Positions 68 to 11,910 of a stretch of 55,460 nt of DNA are shown here, one piece after another; the first letter of the stretch is position 1, and each line of letters opens with the position of its first letter. Source of the stretch: a virus; IMG/VR virus record IMGVR_UViG_3300034198_010091, positions 1-55,460 of that record. One strand, given 5' to 3'. The position numbers and the translations under genes are program-made. A model generated the notes under the pieces. The model saw only the letters and a list, made by a program, of their open reading frames with translations. It was not told the DNA's origin and searched no databases.

Positions 68-790
68 TTAGATTGTCAACCCATCATTTTGAGTTCTAAC
101 TTCGTCTGAATATTTTTGAATATAATATTCAATATCCAAGGGTGTACTATCCATCAGTATATTACCATCAATTCTTTTTGATAAATGAAATATAACATCT
201 CTGAAATAATCTTCGCTGAAGTTATTAAATAACCCCTTTAAAAAGAAACATGGTTCATTTGTCAAAAAATTAAATTTTAATAAGGATAATACTGGATTAT
301 TAAATCCCACAATTTTATCTTTATTATTCAATATTTTGTTTAATATCGTATTGTACACTCTAGCTGGTAAAGAGTCTATAATAGATCTTTTCTCCTGTAC
401 ACTTAAATCTATTAAATTAATAGAAATACCAGATATATTAATCTGTTGTATTAATGAGTATATTGGTATTGTTTCTTCTTGTACGATCGTATCAAAGGTT
501 TTTGGAATGTCAAGAATTATTTTCAAATCATCCTTCACTATTTCGATTTCTTTACCCAAATTCTCGGGTAATTCTGAAAGTATATAGGATAATGATATGT
601 TTACAGGCTTATCAGTTAAATTCAAACTTAAACTTGGAGAAACATCATACTCCCAAGATTTAAGAATATTTCTAAATTTTTCAAAAACATTAGATCCTTC
701 GTATGAATTGAAATAATCCAACAAAACTTCAGTATTTTTTCTCTCAAGTGATTGAGAGATTTTTTTCAAATCTCTAAAACAAATATTCAT
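68..790 (-). CDS. Possible baseplate hub / hub-assembly protein (gp26/gp51-like)
   Basis: 240 aa, start ATG overlapping the stop of the upstream tube-like gene (TAATGA), so translation is probably coupled. The second half has spaced motifs (DLSVQEKRSIIDSLP, then LLKFNFLTNEPCFFLKGLF, then a segment ending STPLDIEYYIQKYSDEV) that recall the T4-like baseplate hub and hub-assembly proteins. It has no signal peptide or membrane segment. The position next to tail tube genes fits a tail assembly role. The assignment rests on remembered family pattern and context only; an unrelated tail chaperone is possible. Confidence 0.45.
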   Translation of the reverse strand: MNICFRDLKKISQSLERKNTEVLLDYFNSYEGSNVFEKFRNILKSWEYDVSPSLSLNLTDKPVNISLSYILSELPENLGKEIEIVKDDLKIILDIPKTFDTIVQEETIPIYSLIQQINISGISINLIDLSVQEKRSIIDSLPARVYNTILNKILNNKDKIVGFNNPVLSLLKFNFLTNEPCFFLKGLFNNFSEDYFRDVIFHLSKRIDGNILMDSTPLDIEYYIQKYSDEVRTQNDGLTI

Positions 791-1395
791 TAAAGTTGAA
801 CGTAGTTTTCACAAGCGAATGTTACTGATTTGATTTTTATATCGGTGTTGTCGTAATTTAGAGTGTATCCCTCTACTGCTGTAGGAAATAGTTTTTTAAA
901 TTGAAATCCTTTAATAAATTTACCTCCATTGGTATATTGCTTAACTACCATATTACCTTTCAATGATGGACCGTTTTCTACCAGACCTTTAATACCTAAA
1001 GCAATCATCCATGGTCTAAAAAATGTGTGTTCTATATCGATTTCAGTTTCTAGGAAATTAACAGTTAATTGTCTATCGTTTAAAAAATTTGATCTTTTAG
1101 TTAAACCATAACCCGGTAAAAATCCACCAGTGCTTCCATTAATTTGAATTGGATCGAATGTAGATGTCTCTGCTGGTAAACCAACCTCTTGAGCCACTAG
1201 AATCGATCCAGATCGAGTATATAACCCCGGACTGCCCTTCGCTTGCCAAGACTCACCAGCATCGCTTAAAACGCTATTTATGGCACCTGTGGACACGCCA
1301 TCGATGGTTACAGTCCATAAGACGGGAAGATTTAAGAAAAATCGTCTATCTCCTGAGAATGCTGAATAAAATTCCTCAATATTAGGTCCACCCAT
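790..1395 (-). CDS. Tail tube-like virion protein (gp19-family fold)
   Basis: 201 aa. The C-terminal half has the tail-tube pattern of an FRPW segment, a basic stretch (GKFIKGFQFKKLFPTAVEG) and a final strand ending in TFACENYVQL. It is clearly different from the canonical tube protein at 1471-2037, so it is a second tube-fold protein, for instance a tube initiator (gp54-like), terminator or adaptor. It has its own late box 5 nt before the ATG and follows a terminator that separates it from gp19. Tube-fold assignment is fairly secure; the exact role is not. Confidence 0.65.
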   Translation of the reverse strand: MGGPNIEEFYSAFSGDRRFFLNLPVLWTVTIDGVSTGAINSVLSDAGESWQAKGSPGLYTRSGSILVAQEVGLPAETSTFDPIQINGSTGGFLPGYGLTKRSNFLNDRQLTVNFLETEIDIEHTFFRPWMIALGIKGLVENGPSLKGNMVVKQYTNGGKFIKGFQFKKLFPTAVEGYTLNYDNTDIKIKSVTFACENYVQL

Positions 1396-1400
1396 GAGAA

Positions 1401-1407
1401 TATTTAA
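1401..1407 (-). promoter_or_regulatory. Late promoter box TTAAATA
   Basis: TTAAATA, 5-nt gap, ATG at 1395. It stands just downstream of the gp19 terminator, so it restarts transcription for the second tube-like gene. Confidence 0.75.
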
Positions 1408-1417
1408 TACATAAATA

Positions 1418-1452
1418 AAAAATCACAATAATCCGAGGACTATTGTGATTTG
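1418..1452 (-). terminator. Rho-independent terminator after gp19
   Basis: On the minus strand an 11-bp perfect stem AAATCACAATA / TATTGTGATTT encloses a 10-nt G+C-rich loop and continues into a T-rich run. It lies 18 nt beyond the gp19 stop codon. Flanking A/T runs would let it work in both directions. Confidence 0.85.
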
Positions 1453-1470
1453 AGAATTTACAATTTTAGA

Positions 1471-2037
1471 TCAGTTGCTAAAATCTTCATACCAATGATA
1501 ACTCCAAGTCGTACCTAGAGTAACAACCTCACCAGTTCCATCAGCAATAGAGTAATTCATTTCACCAATAGTTCTAAGATTGACTCCAACAAGCTTAATT
1601 GTTTTTACAACCTCCATACCTTGTCCACCCTGATTACCTTGACCACATGGAACTTTAAGAACATCAAGAATCATATAGGATTCTGGTCCCGGCATACACA
1701 TTTGACCAGTTGTGGTTTCATTATTGAAAGTAGCCCTAGACATTTTCTCTAGTTTTGTTCTAAGATCCAATTCTTGGTCTGCGAAAAATTCAATTGCATA
1801 AGATTCTGATCCGGGATATACTGCTCTACCATTAAGGTGAAAGATTTGTCCACTATAGCTAACTGTTTTATCCTCAATATCTCTACCGGGAATTTTAGCT
1901 GTTTTAGCAAAAACAAGTTCATTTTCGCCGTCGAGATCAAGTCCTACAGCGCGAATTTGTTTAACCCTAAGAAAGAAATCCCTTTGGAATTGCTTTTGAG
2001 CTGCTATATTATAGAAAGTTTGAATATCTACTGCCAT
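1471..2037 (-). CDS. gp19: Tail tube protein gp19
   Basis: 188 aa, the expected size for the T4 tube monomer (163 aa) with small insertions. It forms the hexameric inner tube inside the contracting sheath. It opens MAVDIQTFYNIAAQKQFQRD, continues with tube-type strands (KIPGRDIEDKTVSYSGQIFHLNGRAVYPG) and ends with GTTWSYHWYEDF. A CTAAATA late box stands 5 nt before the ATG, and a strong hairpin terminator follows the stop. It is two genes downstream of the sheath gene, the normal T4-like order, with an endonuclease remnant between them. Confidence 0.9.
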   Translation of the reverse strand: MAVDIQTFYNIAAQKQFQRDFFLRVKQIRAVGLDLDGENELVFAKTAKIPGRDIEDKTVSYSGQIFHLNGRAVYPGSESYAIEFFADQELDLRTKLEKMSRATFNNETTTGQMCMPGPESYMILDVLKVPCGQGNQGGQGMEVVKTIKLVGVNLRTIGEMNYSIADGTGEVVTLGTTWSYHWYEDFSN

Positions 2038-2041
2038 ATAA

Positions 2042-2585
2042 TTATTTAGTCTTTCGATAACTAAAAACTAAATTTCCACAATCATAAATCCTCCTATACC
2101 CATTTGAATACATTATTTCCCTTTCTGTCCTAGTATCACTATCAAAAGATATTTTATGTTTTTGAAAATTCATCCTATGATATAATGTCAAATGCTTTAC
2201 GTAATAGTAATTCGGAGTGGTGGTTCTCAACAAATCCATCCCAAGAGATTTATACAAATTCCCATTACTATATCTAAGATCGCAATAAGAGATAAAATTA
2301 TCGACATTAGAATTTTTTAAAATTTTACTCGCACCACCAATAACCGAGGTGTTCAATTTATTACAGAATCTTATCAACTCATATTCACATTTACCCCTCG
2401 TCAATTTTCTTTTACCGAAGCACATTAAAGAAACTAACTCATCATTATAATATAAGCCATATGACTCAGAATAAGAACAATGTCCTTGTATATGATTAAT
2501 ATCCAGAAACTTATTACCTTCTCGGCTTGAAACTTCCGAAAATCTGCATTTTCTGGTATTTTTTTAATTCTTCTTTTAAATTCAT
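2042..2585 (-). pseudogene. Homing endonuclease-type gene broken by a frameshift in an A7 tract
   Basis: An open frame ending at 2042 encodes a common phage endonuclease-associated domain: NKFLDINHIQG, LYYNDELVSLMCFGKRK, VIGGASKIL, then the typical tail GYRRIYDCGNLVFSY. The domain is open back to about 2565, far upstream of the only in-frame ATG (2425), but has no start codon there. An ATG at 2585 begins MNLKEELKK in another frame and stops after 23 codons. Removing one base from the run of seven A (minus strand, 2559-2565) would join the two into one protein of about 180 aa. It therefore looks like a recently inactivated, or slippage-dependent, mobile gene between sheath and tube. A sequencing error in the homopolymer is also possible. 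Confidence 0.7.
2043..2049 (-). promoter_or_regulatory. Late promoter box CTAAATA for gp19
   Basis: CTAAATA, 5-nt gap, ATG at 2037. The box lies inside the 3' end of the endonuclease remnant, so gp19 keeps its own promoter despite the insertion. Confidence 0.8.
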
Positions 2586-2630
2586 AGATTTGTTAACTTG
2601 GCTTCTAATTATAATTAACATACCAATAAG

Positions 2631-2665
2631 AAAAAATCCAATAAGTTTTTATCTTATTGGATTTT
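2631..2665 (-). terminator. Rho-independent terminator after the sheath gene
   Basis: Stem AATCCAATAAG / CTTATTGGATT around a 7-nt loop, followed by a T run on the minus strand. It lies about 30 nt after the gp18 stop. A second imperfect copy of the phrase TTTTTATCTTATYGGATTTTAG directly precedes it (2646-2692), so the 3' side of the hairpin is duplicated. Confidence 0.8.
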
Positions 2666-2692
2666 AGTTTTTATCTTATCGGATTTTAGTTA

Positions 2693-5008
2693 TTAGATCA
2701 ATTCATTGAAGTTAGCATCAGATCTTGTTGAAACGAATTCAACAACGATAAATTCTGCTGTTCTCACCAACTTAACCAGAATTGTAGCTCTTAGCTCATT
2801 ATTATCGATAACCTCTGGTGTATTAACTCTTTCATCTGCTACGATAAGATAATCATATAGACCACCATTACGTTTAGCGTATTCGAAGATTGGAGTTAGG
2901 GTATTAACGAAACGGGTTCTTGTGAATTCGGTATTTGGTTCGAAGACGAAGAAAATACTAGCTTTCTTGGTAGGTCTTTCTAGAGCGAATAAGCATCTAC
3001 GAGCATTGATTCTATCAACTGCTCCGGGTTTCTTACTCAGAGTCTTTTGACCGAAGATTGCCATTCCTTGTGATGGATTGAATAGAACAGGATTTAGATT
3101 GCTCTTATAAAGCTCATCACGTTGTTTTTGGTTTGGTGTGATTGCGATATCAACAACATTTCCACTAACAAGTCCTCTGGTATATCCAGCAGGTGCAGAC
3201 CATGGGAATTCAGCAGCATCATTACGAGCATAAGTAGCCCCAGCTACAGAAGAGAATGGAACCCAGATCTTATCACCTAAGAATTCGTCATAAACTTGAG
3301 CCCAGTTTGCGTAGGTTGCAGCATATGAAGTATTTTCTAGTTCAAATTGATGTCTGATAGCCCAGTAGATATCAGTTTGGAAGTTTTTAGTTCTATCTGA
3401 TAGAACTTTGGTATTCTTACCTTGAACCACAATCTGACGAATTGGGTCAGCGATAAAGATACAGTCACCACGACCACCTGTATTAGATGGAAGGTTGCAG
3501 AAGTTTTCAAATACATTGAAGATTGTGCTATAATCTCCACGAAGATCAGTTCCAGCAGAATCGAGAGCATTGGATGTTCTGAGAGCACTGACTGCATTGT
3601 AAGTCACGGTATCATCATAATATGATAGATTTTGTGATTTTGTCATCGCGTAGATGGTTCCAAGACCAGCTTCTACAACTACATCAATATCATAAATCTC
3701 ATCATTCTTAACAGCTTCTAGAGCACGTTCAAGTTTGCTTGGGATTGATCCAAGAACTTTAGAAATAACTTGAGAATCGGAATAAGCACCAACTGGATAT
3801 AAGTTATCAGCATAACCAAGATTGGTTACAAGAGATGTGAATGCTCCAGCAGCAATACCAGATACAGTTGAAGAAGAACCCGCTAAATTGCGTGTTAGAA
3901 CGCGAATTTTCTTTTGTGGGATACCAGACGCATTCAAAGCAGTTCCACCAAATTTATTTGATAGATATGGATTAACTAAGATTTCGACATTTCTATCATT
4001 TGCATCAACATTCTCTAAGAAGAATGATGTTTGTGGTCCACCAGTAGGGTTGATGCGTTTTCTGTAAGAATCGATAGATCCAGTGATCTTACCATCTAGA
4101 ACATAGTCTAGTTTATAAGATTCTGTAGCATACAGGCTCTTACGAAGTTTGAATACGCCGATGTTAAGTAAGTCATCATCGTCACGACCATCAATGTTAT
4201 AATCTGTAAGACCTTCAAGGATTTGTGAGATGCTGTTTTGAACTCCACCGATGTTAGTAGAAGATAGAGTAAACTCTAGAGTTCCATTTGGAATAGTTGT
4301 AAAGTCATATGCTCCGATTCCAGTAAATTTAGAAGATACACTAACAGTTTTAGCTCCAACAATCGCATTGAAGTCGGAAGCTGGGTTGATGTTTGTGTTA
4401 TCACCAATACCAACATAATAACCCTCAAATTGGCTATTGATTGTGGTTTGAGCCTTATTTAAGATAACAATACCTGCTTTACCTAGTTGAGAAACAGACG
4501 ATAGGGCTGCACGGGTAGATCCGCTTTGAGCCCATGTAAATAATGAACCGTCTTGAGCTTGTCGATACTCATCTTCTGATAGAGTAACATGAACAGGATT
4601 ACCGAGAACATATGTTCCAGATAATTGATTTAAATTGGTTTCAACAGCGGATAATACACCACCAGCATCAGCTTTTACAAAATTGACAGGATATGCTAGA
4701 GCAGAATACTCAGAACCGAATCCAGAACCAGAACCTTCACCATAAGGAAGTCGGAATGTGTAGATATTGGCTGGAGAATTTAGTAATTCCTTAACACCAT
4801 GATAAAAATATCTCTCAGCAGCATTTGTTGGAGCACCATAAATAGCTAATAGCTCATCTCTACTGGTGATCTTAATAACTTCATCTGTTACTCCAGAATT
4901 AGAATATCCAGCAATAAAAACATTAGTCCCGACATTTGGACTAGCCACTAAATCTATAGAACGCTCCCTAATTTCGACACCGGGGCTCTGAATTACACGA
5001 GTTGACAT
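2693..5008 (-). CDS. gp18: Tail sheath protein gp18
   Basis: 771 aa, larger than T4 gp18 (659 aa). It forms the contractile sheath around the gp19 tube. The N-terminus SPGVEIRERSIDLVASPNVG and the C-terminus, with FVNTLTPIFEYAKRNGGLYD, the DNN segment and a final FVSTRSDANFNELI, are typical of contractile sheath proteins. The middle (roughly residues 100-450) is the variable surface-exposed part. The start is fixed by a CTAAATA box 5 nt upstream, and a hairpin terminator follows the stop. Codon use matches its neighbours. Confidence 0.97.
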   Translation of the reverse strand: MSTRVIQSPGVEIRERSIDLVASPNVGTNVFIAGYSNSGVTDEVIKITSRDELLAIYGAPTNAAERYFYHGVKELLNSPANIYTFRLPYGEGSGSGFGSEYSALAYPVNFVKADAGGVLSAVETNLNQLSGTYVLGNPVHVTLSEDEYRQAQDGSLFTWAQSGSTRAALSSVSQLGKAGIVILNKAQTTINSQFEGYYVGIGDNTNINPASDFNAIVGAKTVSVSSKFTGIGAYDFTTIPNGTLEFTLSSTNIGGVQNSISQILEGLTDYNIDGRDDDDLLNIGVFKLRKSLYATESYKLDYVLDGKITGSIDSYRKRINPTGGPQTSFFLENVDANDRNVEILVNPYLSNKFGGTALNASGIPQKKIRVLTRNLAGSSSTVSGIAAGAFTSLVTNLGYADNLYPVGAYSDSQVISKVLGSIPSKLERALEAVKNDEIYDIDVVVEAGLGTIYAMTKSQNLSYYDDTVTYNAVSALRTSNALDSAGTDLRGDYSTIFNVFENFCNLPSNTGGRGDCIFIADPIRQIVVQGKNTKVLSDRTKNFQTDIYWAIRHQFELENTSYAATYANWAQVYDEFLGDKIWVPFSSVAGATYARNDAAEFPWSAPAGYTRGLVSGNVVDIAITPNQKQRDELYKSNLNPVLFNPSQGMAIFGQKTLSKKPGAVDRINARRCLFALERPTKKASIFFVFEPNTEFTRTRFVNTLTPIFEYAKRNGGLYDYLIVADERVNTPEVIDNNELRATILVKLVRTAEFIVVEFVSTRSDANFNELI

Positions 5009-5044: not shown

Positions 5045-5629
5045 TCAGTAATCTCTTACCAATTCAGTATGAAGTTGTGAGTATAAAAATGTGAAACCGC
5101 TAGTGATCTCAGTTCCTTCAGAATTTTGTTGATTGTATTTGATTTCGTTAATGCTAGTAGGAAAAGCTTTCTTATATGTGAACTTAATACGCTTCTTACC
5201 AAACTCATCCAATCCATATACTGTGATATCTGTCATGTAATCATTAAAATCACCATCAACAGGGATATTGTTTTGGTTATATATACCAGTTTCTTGATCG
5301 TGTAATAGATTCAACCAAGAGTAGATCACCCAATAGTTATTGTATTCAGAATCTACCTTGAATTCAACATTCAGAGGTGGGTAAGAATCTTTACTGAATG
5401 ATGATATATATAAGGTAGATCCAGAATACCTAGTTTCTACACCTTTTACAGTAATCTCTGGAACCATTGTTCCGAAGATTGAGAATTGGACAGAATCAGG
5501 ATTTATATGATTATCATCTCTTTGATATCTGGATACTATTGGTTTTAGAATTGGTGGAACATCAAAAACTAAGAGGAATTTATCCTCCCTTGCTCTGTTT
5601 AAGTATGATTGTTTTGTGATATCACTCAT
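5045..5629 (-). CDS. Tail tube-like or tail completion virion protein
   Basis: 194 aa. The layout resembles tube-fold proteins: IFGTMVPEITVKGVETRYSG near residue 50, a helix with NYWVIYSWLNLLHDQETG near residue 100, and a C-terminal strand set with KAFPTSINEIKYNQQ and SGFTFLYSQLHTEL. It is the third tube-like protein in the first 6 kb. It sits directly upstream of the sheath, where T4 has neck and tail completion genes (15, 16), so it may be a tail terminator or adaptor. Its CTAAATA late box overlaps the stop of the preceding small gene. Confidence 0.6.
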   Translation of the reverse strand: MSDITKQSYLNRAREDKFLLVFDVPPILKPIVSRYQRDDNHINPDSVQFSIFGTMVPEITVKGVETRYSGSTLYISSFSKDSYPPLNVEFKVDSEYNNYWVIYSWLNLLHDQETGIYNQNNIPVDGDFNDYMTDITVYGLDEFGKKRIKFTYKKAFPTSINEIKYNQQNSEGTEITSGFTFLYSQLHTELVRDY

Positions 5630-5829: not shown

Positions 5830-6405
5830 TCAAAAAATTGAAAAATAATTTGGTCCGATACCCCACATTCCACGATGCGAATGACTACAAACTTTAAATT
5901 CTCCATCTTCCCAAACAAACCAAGGCAATCCACTATCACCAGCTATTATATCTCTATTATAATAAGTCCCAAACACAATTCTATCATCCAACAGGGCTCT
6001 ACGGAGAGATATTGTATTGTCTTGATGTAAAGTTCCCATCAATTGCATTTTTTTGATAGTTTTACTTATCTTATAAATTTTTACACCCGCTGGCCATTTT
6101 TGTGTTAATTTGCATATGGACACATCATCGGAAGCGTATGTATTGTCAACGGATTCGATTTTTCTGAAGATTTTTACCCCATCTTTAATAACATAAACCG
6201 AATTACCAACAACTGGATTTGAGTGCTTGCATACAATAATCTCATCTTCCCCAGATACCCATCCTTTTATCCATCCTTTGTCAACAACAGGATAATCTGA
6301 TAGAACTACTCCACTTTTATCTATAGAATCCCAATTTATTTTTTCTTCAAATAAACTACGAATCCAGTTGATAAGACTACGAAATAAATTTAATTTGCGT
6401 CCCAT
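5830..6405 (-). CDS. Trypsin-like serine protease, possibly virion-associated
   Basis: 191 aa from the ATG at 6405, chosen because GTAAATA lies 5 nt upstream; an ATG 15 nt further up overlaps the terminase stop. The chymotrypsin-type active-site serine motif is clear near residue 157 (IIAGDSGLPWF), followed by a strand and SHSHRGMWGIG. A candidate Asp is in ASDDVSICKL, and a candidate His is in VCKHSNPVVG. The fold differs from the T4 prohead protease gp21, which is of the herpesvirus assemblin type. Late expression next to tail genes suggests maturation or cell-entry proteolysis. Protease family is likely; substrate unknown. Confidence 0.7.
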   Translation of the reverse strand: MGRKLNLFRSLINWIRSLFEEKINWDSIDKSGVVLSDYPVVDKGWIKGWVSGEDEIIVCKHSNPVVGNSVYVIKDGVKIFRKIESVDNTYASDDVSICKLTQKWPAGVKIYKISKTIKKMQLMGTLHQDNTISLRRALLDDRIVFGTYYNRDIIAGDSGLPWFVWEDGEFKVCSHSHRGMWGIGPNYFSIF

Positions 6406-6410
6406 TGTAA

Positions 6411-6417
6411 TATTTAC
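6411..6417 (-). promoter_or_regulatory. Late promoter box GTAAATA
   Basis: GTAAATA, 5-nt gap, ATG at 6405. The box contains the stop codon of the terminase C-part gene. Confidence 0.65.
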
Positions 6418-9257
6418 CATTGCATCACTCTCTCCATAGCATCATATCTATCCTGACTATAAGATCTAGATGGGTCCACATAAGGCATTGCTCCATTCAG
6501 AGGCATCCAGCCTTCAGCAAATAATCCAGCCATTTCATCATCAGCTTCTCCAAATGCACCAAAAGCCATTGGAGATAGATTAGAATTCTCGATTTTATCA
6601 ACTTGTTCATTTGTATAGATAGATGTTGGATTTTCAAACATCTTTATACCGTAATTATATGGAGTTATCTTAGCGGGTTTACCATAATCATCTTCTTCAT
6701 CGATTTCGAAATACATTTGTGTGATTTCTCGATGTAAAATCATCAAAGCCCAAACAAATGCCATAACACGGTCATCATGTTCACCACCTTTAGCTTTCCA
6801 TGTAGCGTTTGGATATCTAATAAATGTTTTGAATTCATTCAAGGTATGAATTGATCTGAATGTTACGTTTCTGATTTCATTAATGAAATATCTCTGATTT
6901 AAAATAGCAGCATGTTTAGTATTGGTATGAGATAATACTCCAAACTGTTGATTTTTGTGTGCTTGTTTCGCACCCCATGACACAACCTTCTCATAGGCAA
7001 AATCCATTGCTAATCTATCACAAACTTGACCACCTTGGTTATTTCTTTCAATTAAAACTAATGGACTTCCCCAATTTAGGAGAATATCATGTAATTTATT
7101 AGAGAATTCTGCTGGGGCTATAGTATTACTATGATATTCAGCAACTTGTCTGATATCTTTGAGATCAGTAATGTCTAGCATTTGAATTACAGAGGCATCT
7201 CCACCAACTCCTTCAGATACATCGACACCCGCCACGTATAATCTTGATGGATCTGGATCTTCCCAAATTTTATAATGACCATCATCTAGTAAATGCTTGG
7301 GTTCCGAACAGTTTTTCTTCAATTCATCGAATAATTCAACATCGATAGCTGAAGTTCCATCATCTGCGAAGTGACATTCATATTCTTGGGCGAATGCTTC
7401 ATATGAACCCAGTTTGGCTATTTCTTTGCGCTTCCACTCCTCATCACGACCGGGAATTTCTGTCCACTGAACTTCTTCTGGGTGAAACTCATTCCACTCA
7501 GGAGTTCCCTCTTTTAATGCCGCCGAATAAAAAGTATGAAATATATTATTTTTACCCTTCGGGGTTGATGTTATTAGGATTTTTGATGTTTTGGCTCTGG
7601 AAATCGTTGGTATAACCGAACGAACAAAGTCTTCCACAATACTCTGAGGTTCCAAATACGAAAATTCATCCAATAATAAACATTGATGACTGACAAAACC
7701 ATTGGTGATATATTTAAAATTTTCAGATGCTACAATATCATACACTTCTGTCATCCCCCCATCCTCAATTTTCACAACTTCTTCGTATCCACTCTCAGTT
7801 TTTAACTGATCTCCAACTTGTAACCCCGATACTGGTATTTGTACATCGTTATATGTGAAAAAAATATGATCTTTGGTTATGCTGACGGATCTTTTAGTAG
7901 TAAAAACTTCCACACATTCTCGAACTCCGTTACTGATTACATTTTTAAACTTTTTGAACCCATCATCGGTCAATATTTCAACCTTATTATTATGAATCGG
8001 GCTGTAATCGATATGCATTATTTCTGGATATGACTCCGTATACATCTTCTTTAAATTCAGAAGCTTTTCCTTGGCCCTTTTCTTTTTCTGCGCCACGGTA
8101 TCCCAAATTATAAGCAATTTATATCCCTTATCTGTCAAATAATCATATTTTACTATATCTTTATCGATATGTTTTTGAAACAGGTGATGTTTTTCATTTA
8201 TTTCGACTATAAGTTTCTCCCCCACCAAAGCATCACAGACAAATGGGCCGATTCTTTTAGAATATTCTATGTCTTCATCCAGTATTTCGAATCGAACCTT
8301 TAAAAGCTCTAATATTTTTAACTCATTTTTACCAATATTTGTTTTATATGTATTATTGGAATTGTTCGACAACCTTCTGTCTATATGTTCGAAATATCTA
8401 TTTGAACATCGAGTCCCACAGGTTTCGGGATACTTTAATAAATAATCATTAAATACCACTTTTTTCGTATTACAAACTACACAGTGAGGAGATTCTTGTA
8501 AATTATTCACGAACCTATATGCGGCAGCTAATTTGGATTCTTTTCCATCCCAACCTATGTGATCAGTATAATTTCGAAAACTATTCAATGTTTGACGGGT
8601 CTGCTCTTCCTTATTAAGTCTTATTTCAAACATTAGAATATTGTCTCGTATCAATCTACATTTATCAATGTCTGACATAAGAATGAATTCCTCAATTATA
8701 TTAAACCTATCCAAACATTGCACATATGCGAACTTCGGCTGAAATAATTTTCCGTTTTTGTTTATTATTGCTTGTTTTGTTTTTGAAAAATTTAAATAAA
8801 ATATTCTCGTTCTGATAGATGGATTGAATTCATCGAGATACTTTGTATCGTTCATCAAATATTCTAAAATATATGGATGTTTTTTGACATTGCTTATGGC
8901 TGATGCCGATTTAAAAAATGTTCTTAGCTGCTCATCATTCAACTTACTCAAATCAAACTGTTCATATAAAGTATCACTATATCCGAGTTCAAATGATAGA
9001 TATCTATAATTTCTCCCCTTTTCAGAGTTGCTGGGTATTTCTCGAATATCATTGAAATAGTGATATGCCCGTTGACCCATCTCTTTTCTCAAAAAATGAT
9101 CATCTAAATATGATGTCTTTTCTTTCAATTCATCATACAAATGTGGATATTTTTTAAATAATGTATATATACTATTTGATTTTTTGCTATCCTTGTATCG
9201 GTCAAACACAAAGTCCAGATCTATAGAGTTGCTCAATCGTCGTTTCATATATAGCAT
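6414..9257 (-). CDS. terL (C-part): Vsr-like endonuclease fused to split-intein C-part and terminase large subunit C-part
   Basis: 947 aa. Residues 1 to about 415 are a homing endonuclease: a zinc cluster (HCVVCN ... CGTRC), then a Vsr/EDxHD-like core with CDALVGEKLIVEINEKHH and YKLLIIWD. Residues about 424-525 are an intein C-part with block B (SITKDH), block F (EVYDIVASENF) and end VSHQ. From Cys526 the terminase resumes with Walker B (LLLDEFS), the ITSTPKG coupling motif, and a RuvC-like nuclease (VAGVDVSEG, LIERNNQGG, HDDRVMAFVW). Trans-splicing with the product of 9202-10899 would yield full gp17, the motor that packages DNA. The start is ATG 9257 or ATG 9248; both lie inside the upstream IntN coding sequence in another frame. 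An internal ATG at 8018 could yield IntC-terminase without the endonuclease. Confidence 0.92.
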   Translation of the reverse strand: MLYMKRRLSNSIDLDFVFDRYKDSKKSNSIYTLFKKYPHLYDELKEKTSYLDDHFLRKEMGQRAYHYFNDIREIPSNSEKGRNYRYLSFELGYSDTLYEQFDLSKLNDEQLRTFFKSASAISNVKKHPYILEYLMNDTKYLDEFNPSIRTRIFYLNFSKTKQAIINKNGKLFQPKFAYVQCLDRFNIIEEFILMSDIDKCRLIRDNILMFEIRLNKEEQTRQTLNSFRNYTDHIGWDGKESKLAAAYRFVNNLQESPHCVVCNTKKVVFNDYLLKYPETCGTRCSNRYFEHIDRRLSNNSNNTYKTNIGKNELKILELLKVRFEILDEDIEYSKRIGPFVCDALVGEKLIVEINEKHHLFQKHIDKDIVKYDYLTDKGYKLLIIWDTVAQKKKRAKEKLLNLKKMYTESYPEIMHIDYSPIHNNKVEILTDDGFKKFKNVISNGVRECVEVFTTKRSVSITKDHIFFTYNDVQIPVSGLQVGDQLKTESGYEEVVKIEDGGMTEVYDIVASENFKYITNGFVSHQCLLLDEFSYLEPQSIVEDFVRSVIPTISRAKTSKILITSTPKGKNNIFHTFYSAALKEGTPEWNEFHPEEVQWTEIPGRDEEWKRKEIAKLGSYEAFAQEYECHFADDGTSAIDVELFDELKKNCSEPKHLLDDGHYKIWEDPDPSRLYVAGVDVSEGVGGDASVIQMLDITDLKDIRQVAEYHSNTIAPAEFSNKLHDILLNWGSPLVLIERNNQGGQVCDRLAMDFAYEKVVSWGAKQAHKNQQFGVLSHTNTKHAAILNQRYFINEIRNVTFRSIHTLNEFKTFIRYPNATWKAKGGEHDDRVMAFVWALMILHREITQMYFEIDEEDDYGKPAKITPYNYGIKMFENPTSIYTNEQVDKIENSNLSPMAFGAFGEADDEMAGLFAEGWMPLNGAMPYVDPSRSYSQDRYDAMERVMQW
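7683..7988 (-). other. Split intein C-part (IntC) in terminase
   Basis: About 102 aa immediately before Cys526 of the 6414-9257 ORF. It carries block B with the TxxH-type SITKDH, block F EVYDI, and the end TNGFVSHQ. It resembles the Ace Lake TerL split intein (KILSPNGF there, VEILTDDGF here). The terminal residue is Gln rather than Asn; the +1 residue is Cys. Confidence 0.88.
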
Positions 9258-10899
9258 TATTTAGTCTGACTGTGACATTTGTGTTAGCGTTAACGCAATT
9301 GATAGTTTGTCCCCGCGCTGCTGAACCAGTCGTGGTGGAAATACCTATAAGACTACCGTTAGCAAATTCTGAACTTTCTTGCCCCCAAGTTACAACAGCG
9401 GGTTTTAACCATATGGGAAGTTCTTGATAAGCTAATTTGACCCGTTTAAAGATCATCTTCGCAGTATCTTCTTTGTTTGCCACGATTACAGTATTTTTAT
9501 AATCATGGAAACACGTATACCATAGTGCCAAGATCGTTAACACCGTGGTATTGTGGGTTGGAATATTTGTCCTTCCACATAAAAATAGACTATCAGGTGA
9601 ATCTACGGTAATGCACCTCACTGGAACCGACTCAACTTCTTTTATCTCTTTGATATAATGCCATTGATTCCTTTTATTTGATTCTGGAGTTGATATTTCA
9701 TTAATTATAATTCTATCCTTTTTGAAAGGTAGTTTACAAACATATTCTCTTGGTTTAAACTCTAATACTCCACATTCTTTACACTCTATACCATATAATG
9801 TCGGTATTTTAGTTTTGAATGTTGTTTTATACCCCAAACTCTCAATCAATTCTTTAACTTGATGGCATAATTGAATATTGGTGTTGTAAAAATTACAATT
9901 TCCTGATTTATCAACATAACCATCAGAATCTATCAAACCCATCAATAATTCCAATCTTTGATCTCTAGACCCCAATAGGTATTCTGGTGGTATATGTTTA
10001 TTTCCAATCAAATTAGACTGTCTGAGTTCTTTATGTAAAGAAGTCTTATATTTCTCATTCCGATCATTTTTTCCTAGATTAATAGAATAAATATTTCGAT
10101 TTTTGTGATATTGGATATTGATACCGTATCGATCTTTATATTTTTGCAAATTATTAACAGTTTCCTTTAGATCTCTAGTCCCTGATGTGATTCTCGACCC
10201 GTCTGTTGCCCCGTCACCCAACCACATTCCAAGAATATACGGATCTATAATGTAATCCTTTTCACTATTTTCCAACCCTTGCACGCAAGAAGGAATTCTA
10301 TAAAAAGGTTCTCCTGCTTTTGTCGTGTGATCACCCAACATCTCCTTAGTAGTTTTTACACTACCTTCTTTATTTTTTCGATTTCTGTCATTTTTCGATT
10401 GAACGAACCAATTATGATCAGCATCCGCCACAATTTCTTCCCCATTATCAAATATAACAGAATAACATTTCCTATCATAGAGAATTTCATGAGCCTTTAC
10501 GACACGACAAATTTTTCCATCTATACCATACAATTCATCCCCATCCTTTAATTCACCTATGGTTGTCCATCCATTTGGGGTATTAATTGGAGTATCCAAG
10601 GCTAATGCTTTTCCACTTTGACGACTTGACAATACGATATTGAATCGATGGTCTTTAAAAGCTTTTAATAACCTTAACTGATAGGGTAATAAAGGAATCA
10701 ACACTTTACCCAAATCCGGTTCAATTATGTAAAAGTAATTCTGTGCAAAATAAACAAGATCGTTCTTACACTTCTCAATCTCCAAAGCCATCTCTGGAGT
10801 GTATTCAAACTTAGCATCTTGGGATGGTAAATTTGGATTACCTAAATACATCTCCTTCTTGGATAATTTGGGTTCTTTAATTTTAGATAGTCTAGGCAT
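9202..10899 (-). CDS. terL (N-part): Terminase large subunit N-part with a cis intein and a split-intein N-part
   Basis: 565 aa. Residues 1-97 are the gp17 N-terminus up to the Walker A (SSRQSGK). Residues 98-450 are a full intein. Residues 451-534 continue the ATPase (TTVLTILALWYTC, then VIVANKEDTAKMIF, then GSAARGQTIN). Residues 535-565 are a short intein N-part starting CVNANTNVTV. N-exteins (181 aa) plus the C-extein in the next ORF (422 aa) give 603 aa, against 610 aa for T4 gp17. The gene has a TTAAATA box 6 nt before its ATG in a divergent promoter region. Its last 56 nt overlap the next ORF in another frame. Confidence 0.95.
   Translation of the reverse strand: MPRLSKIKEPKLSKKEMYLGNPNLPSQDAKFEYTPEMALEIEKCKNDLVYFAQNYFYIIEPDLGKVLIPLLPYQLRLLKAFKDHRFNIVLSSRQSGKALALDTPINTPNGWTTIGELKDGDELYGIDGKICRVVKAHEILYDRKCYSVIFDNGEEIVADADHNWFVQSKNDRNRKNKEGSVKTTKEMLGDHTTKAGEPFYRIPSCVQGLENSEKDYIIDPYILGMWLGDGATDGSRITSGTRDLKETVNNLQKYKDRYGINIQYHKNRNIYSINLGKNDRNEKYKTSLHKELRQSNLIGNKHIPPEYLLGSRDQRLELLMGLIDSDGYVDKSGNCNFYNTNIQLCHQVKELIESLGYKTTFKTKIPTLYGIECKECGVLEFKPREYVCKLPFKKDRIIINEISTPESNKRNQWHYIKEIKEVESVPVRCITVDSPDSLFLCGRTNIPTHNTTVLTILALWYTCFHDYKNTVIVANKEDTAKMIFKRVKLAYQELPIWLKPAVVTWGQESSEFANGSLIGISTTTGSAARGQTINCVNANTNVTVRLNNAIYETTIEQLYRSGLCV
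9205..9297 (-). other. Split intein N-part (IntN, 31 aa) in terminase
   Basis: Begins with Cys535 right after GQTIN and ends at a stop after IEQLYRSGLCV. Only block A is present, so the split lies between blocks A and B. This very early split is the arrangement known for the AceL-TerL intein, whose IntN is 25 aa. Confidence 0.85.
9258..9264 (-). promoter_or_regulatory. Late promoter box CTAAATA inside the IntN coding sequence
   Basis: CTAAATA directly abuts ATG 9257 and lies 9 nt from ATG 9248, the two candidate starts of the endonuclease-IntC-terminase ORF. It is encoded by Leu-Asn-Asn codons of the terminase IntN. Spacing is less regular than at other genes. Confidence 0.5.
9550..10608 (-). 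other. Class-3-like LAGLIDADG intein inside terminase Walker A
   Basis: 353 aa between SGK and TTVL. It starts with Ala instead of Cys/Ser and ends PTHN, with Thr at +1. Block B has ADADHNWFV (Trp two after the His), block F has VRCITV (Cys at position 4), and block G has Thr before HN: the W-C-T trio of class 3 inteins. Two LAGLIDADG motifs lie in the middle (YILGMWLGDG and LLMGLIDSDG), so it encodes its own homing endonuclease. Removal restores GKTT. Confidence 0.93.
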
Positions 10900-10905
10900 A
10901 TTACA

Positions 10906-10912
10906 TATTTAA
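10906..10912 (-). promoter_or_regulatory. Late promoter box TTAAATA for terminase N-part
   Basis: TTAAATA, 6-nt gap, ATG at 10899, in a 27-nt divergent intergenic region. Confidence 0.75.
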
Positions 10913-10914
10913 GA

Positions 10915-10921
10915 CTAAATA
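10915..10921 (+). promoter_or_regulatory. Late promoter box CTAAATA, divergent partner
   Basis: CTAAATA, 5-nt gap, ATG at 10927. The two boxes face opposite ways and are 2 nt apart. Confidence 0.8.
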
Positions 10922-10926
10922 ACTAT

Positions 10927-11910
10927 ATGAAACAAAAAGACTCTGTATCTTTAGGTGATATTTATGGAAAAATGTTGAATTCTGTTCACACAATCAAGGA
11001 ATCCAAGACTCCGAAAACCTTCGATGGTGAATTCCGTAATAAGAAACAAAAAGATGGTCCCGAATCTGCTGATGGATACAATAAAGCAGAGAATAAAGCA
11101 GCTGAGGAGGATGAGGAAAACGATGATGTGTCCAAATATCTACCCAAATCTAAGATCTCGAAGAGTGCGGATAAATTGAAAGAAAAATTAAAGAATCCCA
11201 ATATTTCAGCTAAAGATAAATCGTCAATAAAAAAATCTTTAAAGAATATAGAAAGTGGATTAGAAGCCGCTGAATCAGAAGAAATTCAAGAATCTAAAAA
11301 AATTGCAACCGACAGGCTAAATAAGCATATGAGCAAATCAGCTTTTGATAAATTGTTTAATAAGGTTCTTAAAGAAAATTTCGGTCAACCTAACGAAGGA
11401 GATGATCTCGATGCCCTTGGTCTTGATGATGCAACACCAGATTCCGATATGGAAGATGACTTTGGTGGTGAAGAAGACGACTTTGGTGGTGAAGAAGATT
11501 CTGTTACCTTTACATTAGATCGCGCAATGGCACAAAGCCTAATCGATGTTCTTCAAGGTGCTCTTGGAGATGAAGAAGGTGGTGATGAATTCGGTGGTGA
11601 AGATGATGATCTTGACTTCGGTGGTGAAGATGATGATATGGATTTCGGTGGTGAAGATGATGATATGGATTTCGAAGAAGACGAAGAAACCCAAGGCACT
11701 AAGCCTGCTCCAGATAAGAAAGCAGCATTCCAAGCTAAATCTAATAAGGTTGGTGGAAAAGCTAACCCAAAGGGTGGTAATAAAGCCAAGACAGATGTAA
11801 CTGATGACACTAAGACTACTCATAGTGCTCCTCCAATCACAGCCCTTATGGGTCACAACAATCAGGTTCCTAAATCAACCCTAAAGGCTAAACAAGATTA
11901 CTTCCGCTAA
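10927..11910 (+). CDS. Acidic repeat protein, possible prohead core or virion component
   Basis: 327 aa, highly charged. The N-third is Lys/Glu rich. Near residue 140 there is an amphipathic segment FDKLFNKVLKENF. Residues about 170-255 are Asp/Glu/Gly repeats built on DDFGGEE and FGGEDDDMD. The C-terminus is basic (Lys/Gly/Asn rich) and ends LKAKQDYFR. Such strongly acidic, low-complexity composition recalls scaffold or internal head proteins, and the gene faces the terminase and precedes the neck gene. It has a late box and a strong terminator after it. I do not recognise a defined family. Confidence 0.6.
   Translation: MKQKDSVSLGDIYGKMLNSVHTIKESKTPKTFDGEFRNKKQKDGPESADGYNKAENKAAEEDEENDDVSKYLPKSKISKSADKLKEKLKNPNISAKDKSSIKKSLKNIESGLEAAESEEIQESKKIATDRLNKHMSKSAFDKLFNKVLKENFGQPNEGDDLDALGLDDATPDSDMEDDFGGEEDDFGGEEDSVTFTLDRAMAQSLIDVLQGALGDEEGGDEFGGEDDDLDFGGEDDDMDFGGEDDDMDFEEDEETQGTKPAPDKKAAFQAKSNKVGGKANPKGGNKAKTDVTDDTKTTHSAPPITALMGHNNQVPKSTLKAKQDYFR

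What the first reader, a model, noticed from the sequence alone, without database searches (positions are those of the whole stretch)
6414..10899. Terminase that needs both a cis and a trans protein splicing event
The large terminase is encoded in two overlapping ORFs. A full intein interrupts Walker A (SSRQSGK / TTVL), and a split intein breaks the chain one residue before Walker B (C then LLLDE). Neither ORF alone carries a working ATP site. Removing both inteins gives 181 + 422 = 603 aa, close to T4 gp17 (610 aa). Two inteins of different mechanistic type in the two nucleotide-binding motifs of one packaging motor is very unusual, and it makes DNA packaging strictly dependent on splicing.
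Basis: partly seen in the sequence, partly recalled or inferred. Interest (0 to 1): 0.93.

Follow-up and report, generated by a model that had tools for sequence, protein, structure and literature searches.

The report
Phage DNA-packaging gene rebuilt by protein splicing
In an uncultivated T4-like phage the DNA-packaging motor protein is made as two incomplete pieces that appear to need one ordinary intein and one split intein to be cut out and joined; the reading holds up, but the same pairing recurs in at least six other phage lineages, some of which carry the gene in up to four pieces.

Summary
ORF1 (10899-9202, minus) carries TerL residues 1-97, a 353-aa LAGLIDADG intein inside Walker A, residues 98-181, and a 31-aa intein-N fragment. 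ORF2 (9257-6414, minus, +1 frame, overlapping) carries an I-Bth0305I-like endonuclease fused to intein-C, then TerL residues 182-603. Spliced in silico, the product aligns over full length with an uninterrupted relative. The Walker A intein is class 3 by sequence; the second is an atypically split class 1 intein of the kind known from AceL-TerL, GOS-TerL and VidaL. A relative (L005), about 50% identical in the endonuclease/intein-C part, keeps the same overlapping split, so it is not an assembly error. The overlap also holds a conserved T4/Aeh1-type late-promoter motif just before a conserved ORF2 ATG, which favours separate expression over frameshifting. "Very unusual" fails: class 3 cis intein plus Walker-B split intein recurs in at least six other IMG/VR lineages, and relatives go further (L118: one cis and three split inteins; five contigs have an ORF supplying only an 11-residue Walker B segment). 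Splicing itself is inferred, not shown. Filed as a new variant of a known kind.

The parts
10609..10899 (-). TerL extein 1 (aa 1-97), ends at ...SSRQSGK (first part of Walker A)
   Evidence: PHROG large-terminase hits
9550..10608 (-). Cis intein, 353 aa, class 3 by motif (Ala1; WCT = HNW, VRC, PTHN) with two LAGLIDADG-type motifs, inserted between Lys and Thr of Walker A
   Evidence: best PDB matches are class 3 DnaB inteins 6rix/6bs8, E 3e-26 to 2e-24
9298..9549 (-). TerL extein 2 (aa 98-181), ends ...ARGQTIN just before Walker B
9205..9297 (-). IntN, 31 aa, Cys1 (CVNANT...SGLCV, then stop): short N fragment of an atypically split class 1 intein
   Evidence: 61% identical to the L005 IntN
9258..9264 (-). 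CTAAATA late-promoter-like motif inside the IntN codons, 9 nt before ATG 9248; conserved in L005
   Evidence: motif precedent in Aeh1, PMC1524935
10906..10912 (-). TTAAATA late-promoter-like motif 6 nt before the ORF1 ATG
8019..9257 (-). Homing endonuclease part of ORF2; likely start ATG at 9248 (MKRRLSNS); Cys motif, then an EDxHD/Vsr-like nuclease domain at about 8031-8363
   Evidence: model of the nuclease domain has I-Bth0305I 3r3p as best Foldseek hit, prob 1.00
7683..8018 (-). IntC, about 112 aa, in frame with the endonuclease; block B TKDH, ends NGFVSHQ
   Evidence: VidaL sequence match E 1.4e-5; model aligns to inteins from about residue 19-35 onward, Z about 13
6417..7682 (-). TerL C-extein, 422 aa, Cys+1 then LLLDE (Walker B) and the RNase H-like nuclease domain
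   Evidence: Terminase_6C E 1e-9; T4 gp17 3cpe/3ezk E about 1e-20

Best explanation
A T4-like large terminase gene occupied by two unrelated mobile inteins. The Walker A element is a class 3 LAGLIDADG intein that should excise in cis from the ORF1 product. The Walker B element is an atypically split class 1 intein: ORF1 ends with a 31-aa IntN, and ORF2, probably transcribed from its own late promoter inside the IntN codons and started at ATG 9248, makes endonuclease-IntC-C-extein. IntN and IntC associate, trans-splice TIN to CLLLDE, and release the endonuclease-IntC as one excised product; the joined 603-aa TerL then has both Walker motifs and the nuclease. The endonuclease is inferred to home into intein-free terL alleles. 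Shown: gene anatomy, motifs, conservation, homology. Inferred: splicing in vivo, promoter use, homing, dependence of packaging on splicing.
For: In-silico splicing restores an uninterrupted TerL matching intact L003 over its whole length. The nucleophiles are present: Cys1/Cys+1 in the split intein; Ala1, F-block Cys and the PTHN Thr in the class 3 intein. C-terminal Gln is common in this clade, 18 of 32 junction clusters. IntC fits solved inteins minus their first ~20-30 residues, the part IntN supplies. L005 keeps the same +1 overlapping arrangement: third-codon-position identity is 0.43-0.48 over ORF2 as a whole but 0.71 in the overlap, as expected for dual coding. YTAAATA lies upstream of 21 of 53 ORFs, ending 5-6 nt before ATG in 20 of 21, against 6 of 1090 internal ATGs; ORF2 has it 9 nt upstream of ATG 9248 and at the same spacing in L005. 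No second TerL in the 202-kb record. Relatives show empty, A-only, B-only and A+B states. A plaque-forming lytic phage, Thanatos-2, has terL split by a comparable insertion next to Walker B.
Against: No splicing was observed. ORF2 lacks a Shine-Dalgarno site and its motif-to-ATG spacing (9 nt) differs from the usual 5-6. AlphaFold confidence is low over the N-terminal ~300 aa of ORF2. A C-terminal Gln can slow or alter cyclization (own knowledge). The promoter motif overlaps codons for conserved residues (LNN), so its conservation in L005 is not fully independent evidence. No proteome or transcriptome is available.
Confidence: 0.85

Rival explanations
1. Programmed +1 ribosomal frameshifting in the 56-nt overlap fuses ORF1 to ORF2, so the second intein is an ordinary cis intein with an endonuclease inside.
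For: ORF2 lies in the +1 frame and overlaps ORF1; the stop context GTT TGA C loosely resembles the prfB shift site.
Against: The stop position and candidate shift site are not conserved: L005 runs about 15 codons further. No Shine-Dalgarno-like stimulator is seen. A conserved ATG with an upstream promoter-like motif gives a simpler route. Most related Walker B inteins have IntN and IntC in separate genes, often with a whole endonuclease gene between, so trans-splicing is the rule in the family.
Confidence: 0.07
2. RNA-level splicing (group I or II intron) joins the two halves.
For: TerL of phage ICP1 is RNA-spliced (PMC10448857), and EDxHD endonucleases also occur in introns (I-Bth0305I itself is an intron protein).
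Against: No Rfam hit up to E = 1 over 6000-11500; both intein halves are intact and fit solved inteins; the conserved dual-coding overlap leaves no room for an intron.
Confidence: 0.02
3. Decayed or assembly-broken gene; the phage uses another terminase.
For: Metagenomic origin; no isolate of this phage.
Against: Identical in a second record; L005 keeps the arrangement at about 50% identity in ORF2 upstream of the junction; no stops in either ORF; no other TerL in 202 kb.
Confidence: 0.03
4. The halves work as a non-covalent two-chain terminase and splicing is dispensable.
For: A phage ribonucleotide reductase cut by an endonuclease insertion works as two peptides (cited in PMC10448857).
Against: Intein catalytic residues are conserved in 32 junction clusters, and Walker A is itself interrupted in cis, so at least one splicing event seems needed.
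Confidence: 0.03

Closest known systems
Fractured genes with split inteins and Vsr-like homing endonucleases (Dassa et al. 2009, gkp095; paper not held, description from own knowledge)
   Same: Phage enzyme gene broken by a split intein, with an EDxHD/Vsr-like endonuclease at the break.
   Different: Here the endonuclease is fused in frame to IntC and ORF2 starts inside the IntN codons, rather than a free-standing gene between; and a second, class 3 cis intein sits in the same protein.
Atypically split TerL inteins (AceL-TerL 25-aa, GOS-TerL 37-aa IntN) and VidaL (16-aa IntN)
   Same: Short IntN, long IntC; class 1; VidaL is the best PDB intein match by sequence.
   Different: 31-aa IntN; IntC carries a ~410-aa endonuclease; ends His-Gln; the exact insertion sites of the reference inteins could not be compared because their loci were not held.
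Class 3 inteins, such as mycobacterial DnaB (6bs8, 6rix), and P-loop inteins of mycobacteriophage TerL (TerL1-a site, PMC5050341)
   Same: Insertion between invariant Lys and Thr of the P-loop; WCT triplet; LAGLIDADG.
   Different: Host protein is a T4-type (Terminase_6) TerL that also carries a split intein.
Cyanophage Mic1 TerL (PMC7156551) and a crAss-like Delta-group TerL (PMC7886860)
   Same: Two inteins in one TerL.
   Different: Both are described as contiguous cis inteins; here one is split.
Trichodesmium DnaE (cis inteins plus a split intein; own knowledge)
   Same: Cis and trans splicing needed for one protein.
   Different: Cellular replicative polymerase, not a phage packaging ATPase.

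Membership tests
Class 3 intein (Walker A element) | No nucleophile at position 1 (Ala1) and Cys at motif C2:4 | tested here: met
   ALALDTP start; VPVRC
Class 3 intein (Walker A element) | WCT triplet: Trp N3:12, Cys C2:4, Thr C1:5 | tested here: met
   ADADHNW, VRC, PTHN; aligned to 6rix/6riy; definition from PMC7891396
Class 3 intein (Walker A element) | Splices through the internal Cys branch | not testable with these tools
   needs biochemistry
Atypically split class 1 intein (Walker B element) | IntN of about 15-37 aa ending its own ORF, IntC in another ORF | tested here: met
   31-aa IntN, separate frame; range from PMC13014065
Atypically split class 1 intein (Walker B element) | Hint fold and catalytic residues: Cys1, block B T-x-x-H, penultimate His, Cys+1 | tested here: met
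   terminal residue is Gln rather than Asn, shared by 18 of 32 clusters
Atypically split class 1 intein (Walker B element) | Trans-splicing activity | not testable with these tools
   needs expression
EDxHD / I-Bth0305I (Vsr-like) homing endonuclease | PD-(D/E)xK-like fold of the Vsr type with E, D, H, D residues | tested here: met
   3r3p best Foldseek hit, prob 1.00, E 1.4e-3; VIA Z 7.2 to 3r3p and 6.5 to Vsr, not above some unrelated rows; E, H, D invariant in the 5-row alignment. The fold evidence is moderate.
EDxHD / I-Bth0305I (Vsr-like) homing endonuclease | Cleaves the intein-free allele | not testable with these tools
   needs an assay on L003-type target DNA
Fractured gene (Dassa type) | Free-standing endonuclease gene between the intein halves | tested here: not met
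   Endonuclease is in frame with IntC; definition from own knowledge. It works like a fractured gene but has a variant layout; several relatives at the same site do have the free-standing layout
T4-type TerL | Walker A/B ATPase plus RNase H-like nuclease, full length after splicing | tested here: met

The most novel reading that the evidence does not exclude
Aquatic T4-like phages have turned terL into a multi-intein assembly line. About five insertion sites cluster around Walker A, Walker B and the start of the nuclease domain; up to four inteins (one class 3 cis, three atypically split) occupy one gene, and one ORF contributes only the 11-residue Walker B segment CLVIDEMAFIE (or close variant) between IntC of one split intein and IntN of the next (L118, L088, L115, L110, L084). 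Mature terminase would need mutually orthogonal trans-splicing reactions among up to four proteins, with breaks tied to different nuclease families (GIY-YIG, TnsA-like, EDxHD).
Probability: 0.7. Interest if true: 0.8.

Novelty: new variant of a known kind. Interest (0 to 1): 0.62.

Why it matters
An essential motor whose two nucleotide-binding motifs are interrupted by inteins of different class, one of them split, would make packaging depend on protein splicing, and gives a natural test of how several inteins coexist without mis-joining. The endonuclease-IntC fusion, with a late-promoter motif hidden in the IntN codons, is a concrete route by which a split intein could acquire independent expression of its second half. 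The survey of relatives supplies new atypically split inteins, three within one gene with halves only 22-37% identical to each other, that may be useful orthogonal tools. Thanatos-1 (described as having a single terL) and Thanatos-2 (split terL) offer a culturable pair in which the question can be tested.

Tried and rejected
Protein searches for the endonuclease-IntC fusion in IMG/VR found only the same virus and L005, plus one partial relative of the Va1 endonuclease; a degenerate-DNA search for intein end plus Walker B was far more productive. The same pattern in bacterial genomes gave one hit without a TerL match. Rfam found no intron. Sigma-70-type promoter matches in the region were no more than chance. 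Frameshifting was considered and rejected for lack of a conserved shift site. The whole-ORF2 model is unreliable before about residue 300, so the nuclease domain was folded alone. The VIA ranking for that domain is not decisive, since mitoribosomal proteins score slightly higher. Dassa 2009 and the GOS-TerL and Cat-TerL papers are not held, so the comparison with them rests on later papers and own knowledge. One guessed DOI fetched an unrelated paper and was ignored.

Full report
Observation. ORF1 (10899-9202, minus) reads extein 1 (97 aa) / cis intein (353 aa) / extein 2 (84 aa) / IntN (31 aa). ORF2 (9257-6414, minus) is in the +1 frame, overlaps ORF1 by 56 nt, and reads endonuclease plus IntC (525 aa from the first ATG, 522 from ATG 9248) / C-extein (422 aa). 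The spliced sequence is 603 aa. A TerL profile built without it matches it as a single full-length domain, and intact L003 (602 aa, 87% identical) aligns throughout. T4 gp17 structures match the C-extein at E about 1e-20. A second IMG/VR record of 202,205 bp is identical over the region compared and has no further TerL.

What the inteins are. The Walker A intein begins with Ala, has the WCT triplet (HNW, VRC, PTHN) and LAGLIDADG motifs, and its best PDB matches are mycobacterial class 3 DnaB inteins (definition in PMC7891396). It sits between the invariant Lys and the Thr of the P-loop, the classic site (PMC5050341). The second intein is class 1 (Cys1, Cys+1), split after 31 residues. Its IntC matches VidaL by sequence and, as a model, matches many inteins from about residue 19-35 onward at Z about 13, which is what a missing IntN predicts. 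It ends in His-Gln, as do 18 of 32 junction clusters in related phages, so Gln is a lineage trait rather than decay.

The endonuclease. ORF2 before IntC has a Cys motif and a nuclease domain with E, D, H, D residues. A model of that domain has I-Bth0305I (3r3p) as top Foldseek hit with probability 1.00; VIA-align gives Z 7.2 to 3r3p and 6.5 to Vsr, alongside unrelated rows of similar score, so the fold assignment is likely but not beyond doubt. Pfam places nucleases found at split sites in relatives in other families: GIY-YIG/SegE and TnsA-like.

Why this is not an artefact, and how ORF2 is made. L005 (IMGVR_UViG_3300037189_016440) has the Walker B split intein alone, with the same +1 overlap. 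Codon-position identities of 0.63/0.74/0.43 over the endonuclease show saturation at silent sites, yet the first 17 codons, which lie in the overlap, are 0.76/0.94/0.71, as expected if both frames are constrained. Genes in the window mostly lack Shine-Dalgarno sites (2 of 35 have one); instead YTAAATA ends 5-6 nt before ATG in 20 of the 21 ORFs (out of 53) that have it, against 6 of 1090 internal ATGs with the motif at all. Aeh1 late promoters are CTAAATA at -12 (PMC1524935), which would make many of these messages leaderless. ORF2 has CTAAATA inside the IntN codons, 9 nt before ATG 9248, and L005 has the same motif and spacing. I infer that ORF2 is transcribed separately with a leader of about 4 nt. 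Frameshifting and RNA splicing are less likely (see rivals).

How unusual. A degenerate DNA pattern for an intein end followed by Cys and Walker B found 55 IMG/VR stretches, nearly all TerL. Of 91 contigs with sites A, B and D all visible, a sample enriched for the pattern, 46 were intein-free, 15 had the B split alone, 8 had A cis plus B split (one of them the window's own virus), and others had further combinations. Counting 90%-identity junction clusters, A cis plus B split occurs in seven lineages besides the window: L076/L087, L089/L091, L090/L118, L097, L098/L095, L100/L112, L115/L084; the Walker A intein is class 3 by motif in all but L089/L091. The endonuclease is placed in different ways at the same B site: a free-standing GIY-YIG gene (for example L070, L080, L088), GIY-YIG in the IntN ORF (L073, L104, L105), EDxHD fused to IntC (window, L005), or none (L100, L108). 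Vibrio phage Va1 has a homologous endonuclease-IntC fusion with a +1 overlap at a different TerL site.

Beyond the finding. In L118, L088, L115, L110 and L084 a second split intein lies 11 residues past the first, so one ORF encodes only IntC, CLVIDEMAFIE (or close variant) and IntN. L118 adds a third split intein at QEF/C and the end of a class 3 cis intein at Walker A. Spliced in silico, L088 and L115 give 564-565 aa TerLs matching the profile as one domain, and no intact copy lies in the same records, which are fragments. Pairwise, the intein halves within L118 are only 22-37% identical to each other, which would help keep the reactions apart. These are inferences from sequence.

Live system. 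Shewanella phage Thanatos-2, a lytic plaque-former, was published with terL in two coding sequences caused by a 1.2-kb insertion described as leading to a frameshift, a difference from its close relative Thanatos-1 (PMC7530303). Its ORF1 ends with IntN and further sequence after YIDE, and its ORF2 begins with IntC and CAFIP. This indicates that a split terL next to Walker B is compatible with infection, presumably through trans-splicing.

Verdict. Real and conserved; mechanism well supported by anatomy and relatives but untested. Cis plus trans splicing in one TerL is not unique and belongs to a broader, under-described pattern of multi-intein terL genes. New variant of a known kind.

Noticed in passing
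window, whole; e.g. 9258-9264, 10906-10912: Many genes have YTAAATA ending 5-6 nt before ATG and no Shine-Dalgarno site, suggesting leaderless late mRNAs in this T4-like clade (also in L003, L004, L006).
   Followed up: partly
L118 100-4250; L088 375-6246 (reverse complement coordinates); L115 3048-8753 (reverse complement coordinates): terL with three split inteins (L118, L088) or one class 3 cis plus two split inteins (L115), including an ORF that supplies only an 11-aa Walker B segment.
   Followed up: partly
L128 (Thanatos-2, MT457553) 467-3567: Published lytic phage with terL split right after Walker B by an IntN-containing ORF and an IntC ORF overlapping by 13 nt; the paper calls it a frameshift.
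   Followed up: partly
L126 (Vibrio phage VP-1) 2834-6176: terL with a cis intein at Walker A and a split at the QEF-type site D, annotated as two terminase genes.
   Followed up: partly
window 2042-2425: Short ORF matching only the last quarter of a homing-endonuclease family (phrog_3339), next to the tail sheath gene; looks like a remnant or a split part.
   Followed up: no
window 790-1395, 1471-2037, 5045-5629: Three ORFs matching the same tail-tube family (phrog_45), suggesting duplicated tail-tube genes.
   Followed up: no
window 5830-6420: ORF directly downstream of terL with a GDSG motif; no Pfam, PHROG or NCBIfam match. Possible trypsin-like protease, unverified.
   Followed up: no
L095 983-1465, L098 3063-3545 (reverse complement coordinates): A 160-aa ORF of unknown family sits between the split-intein halves where an endonuclease usually lies; no Pfam match.
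   Followed up: no
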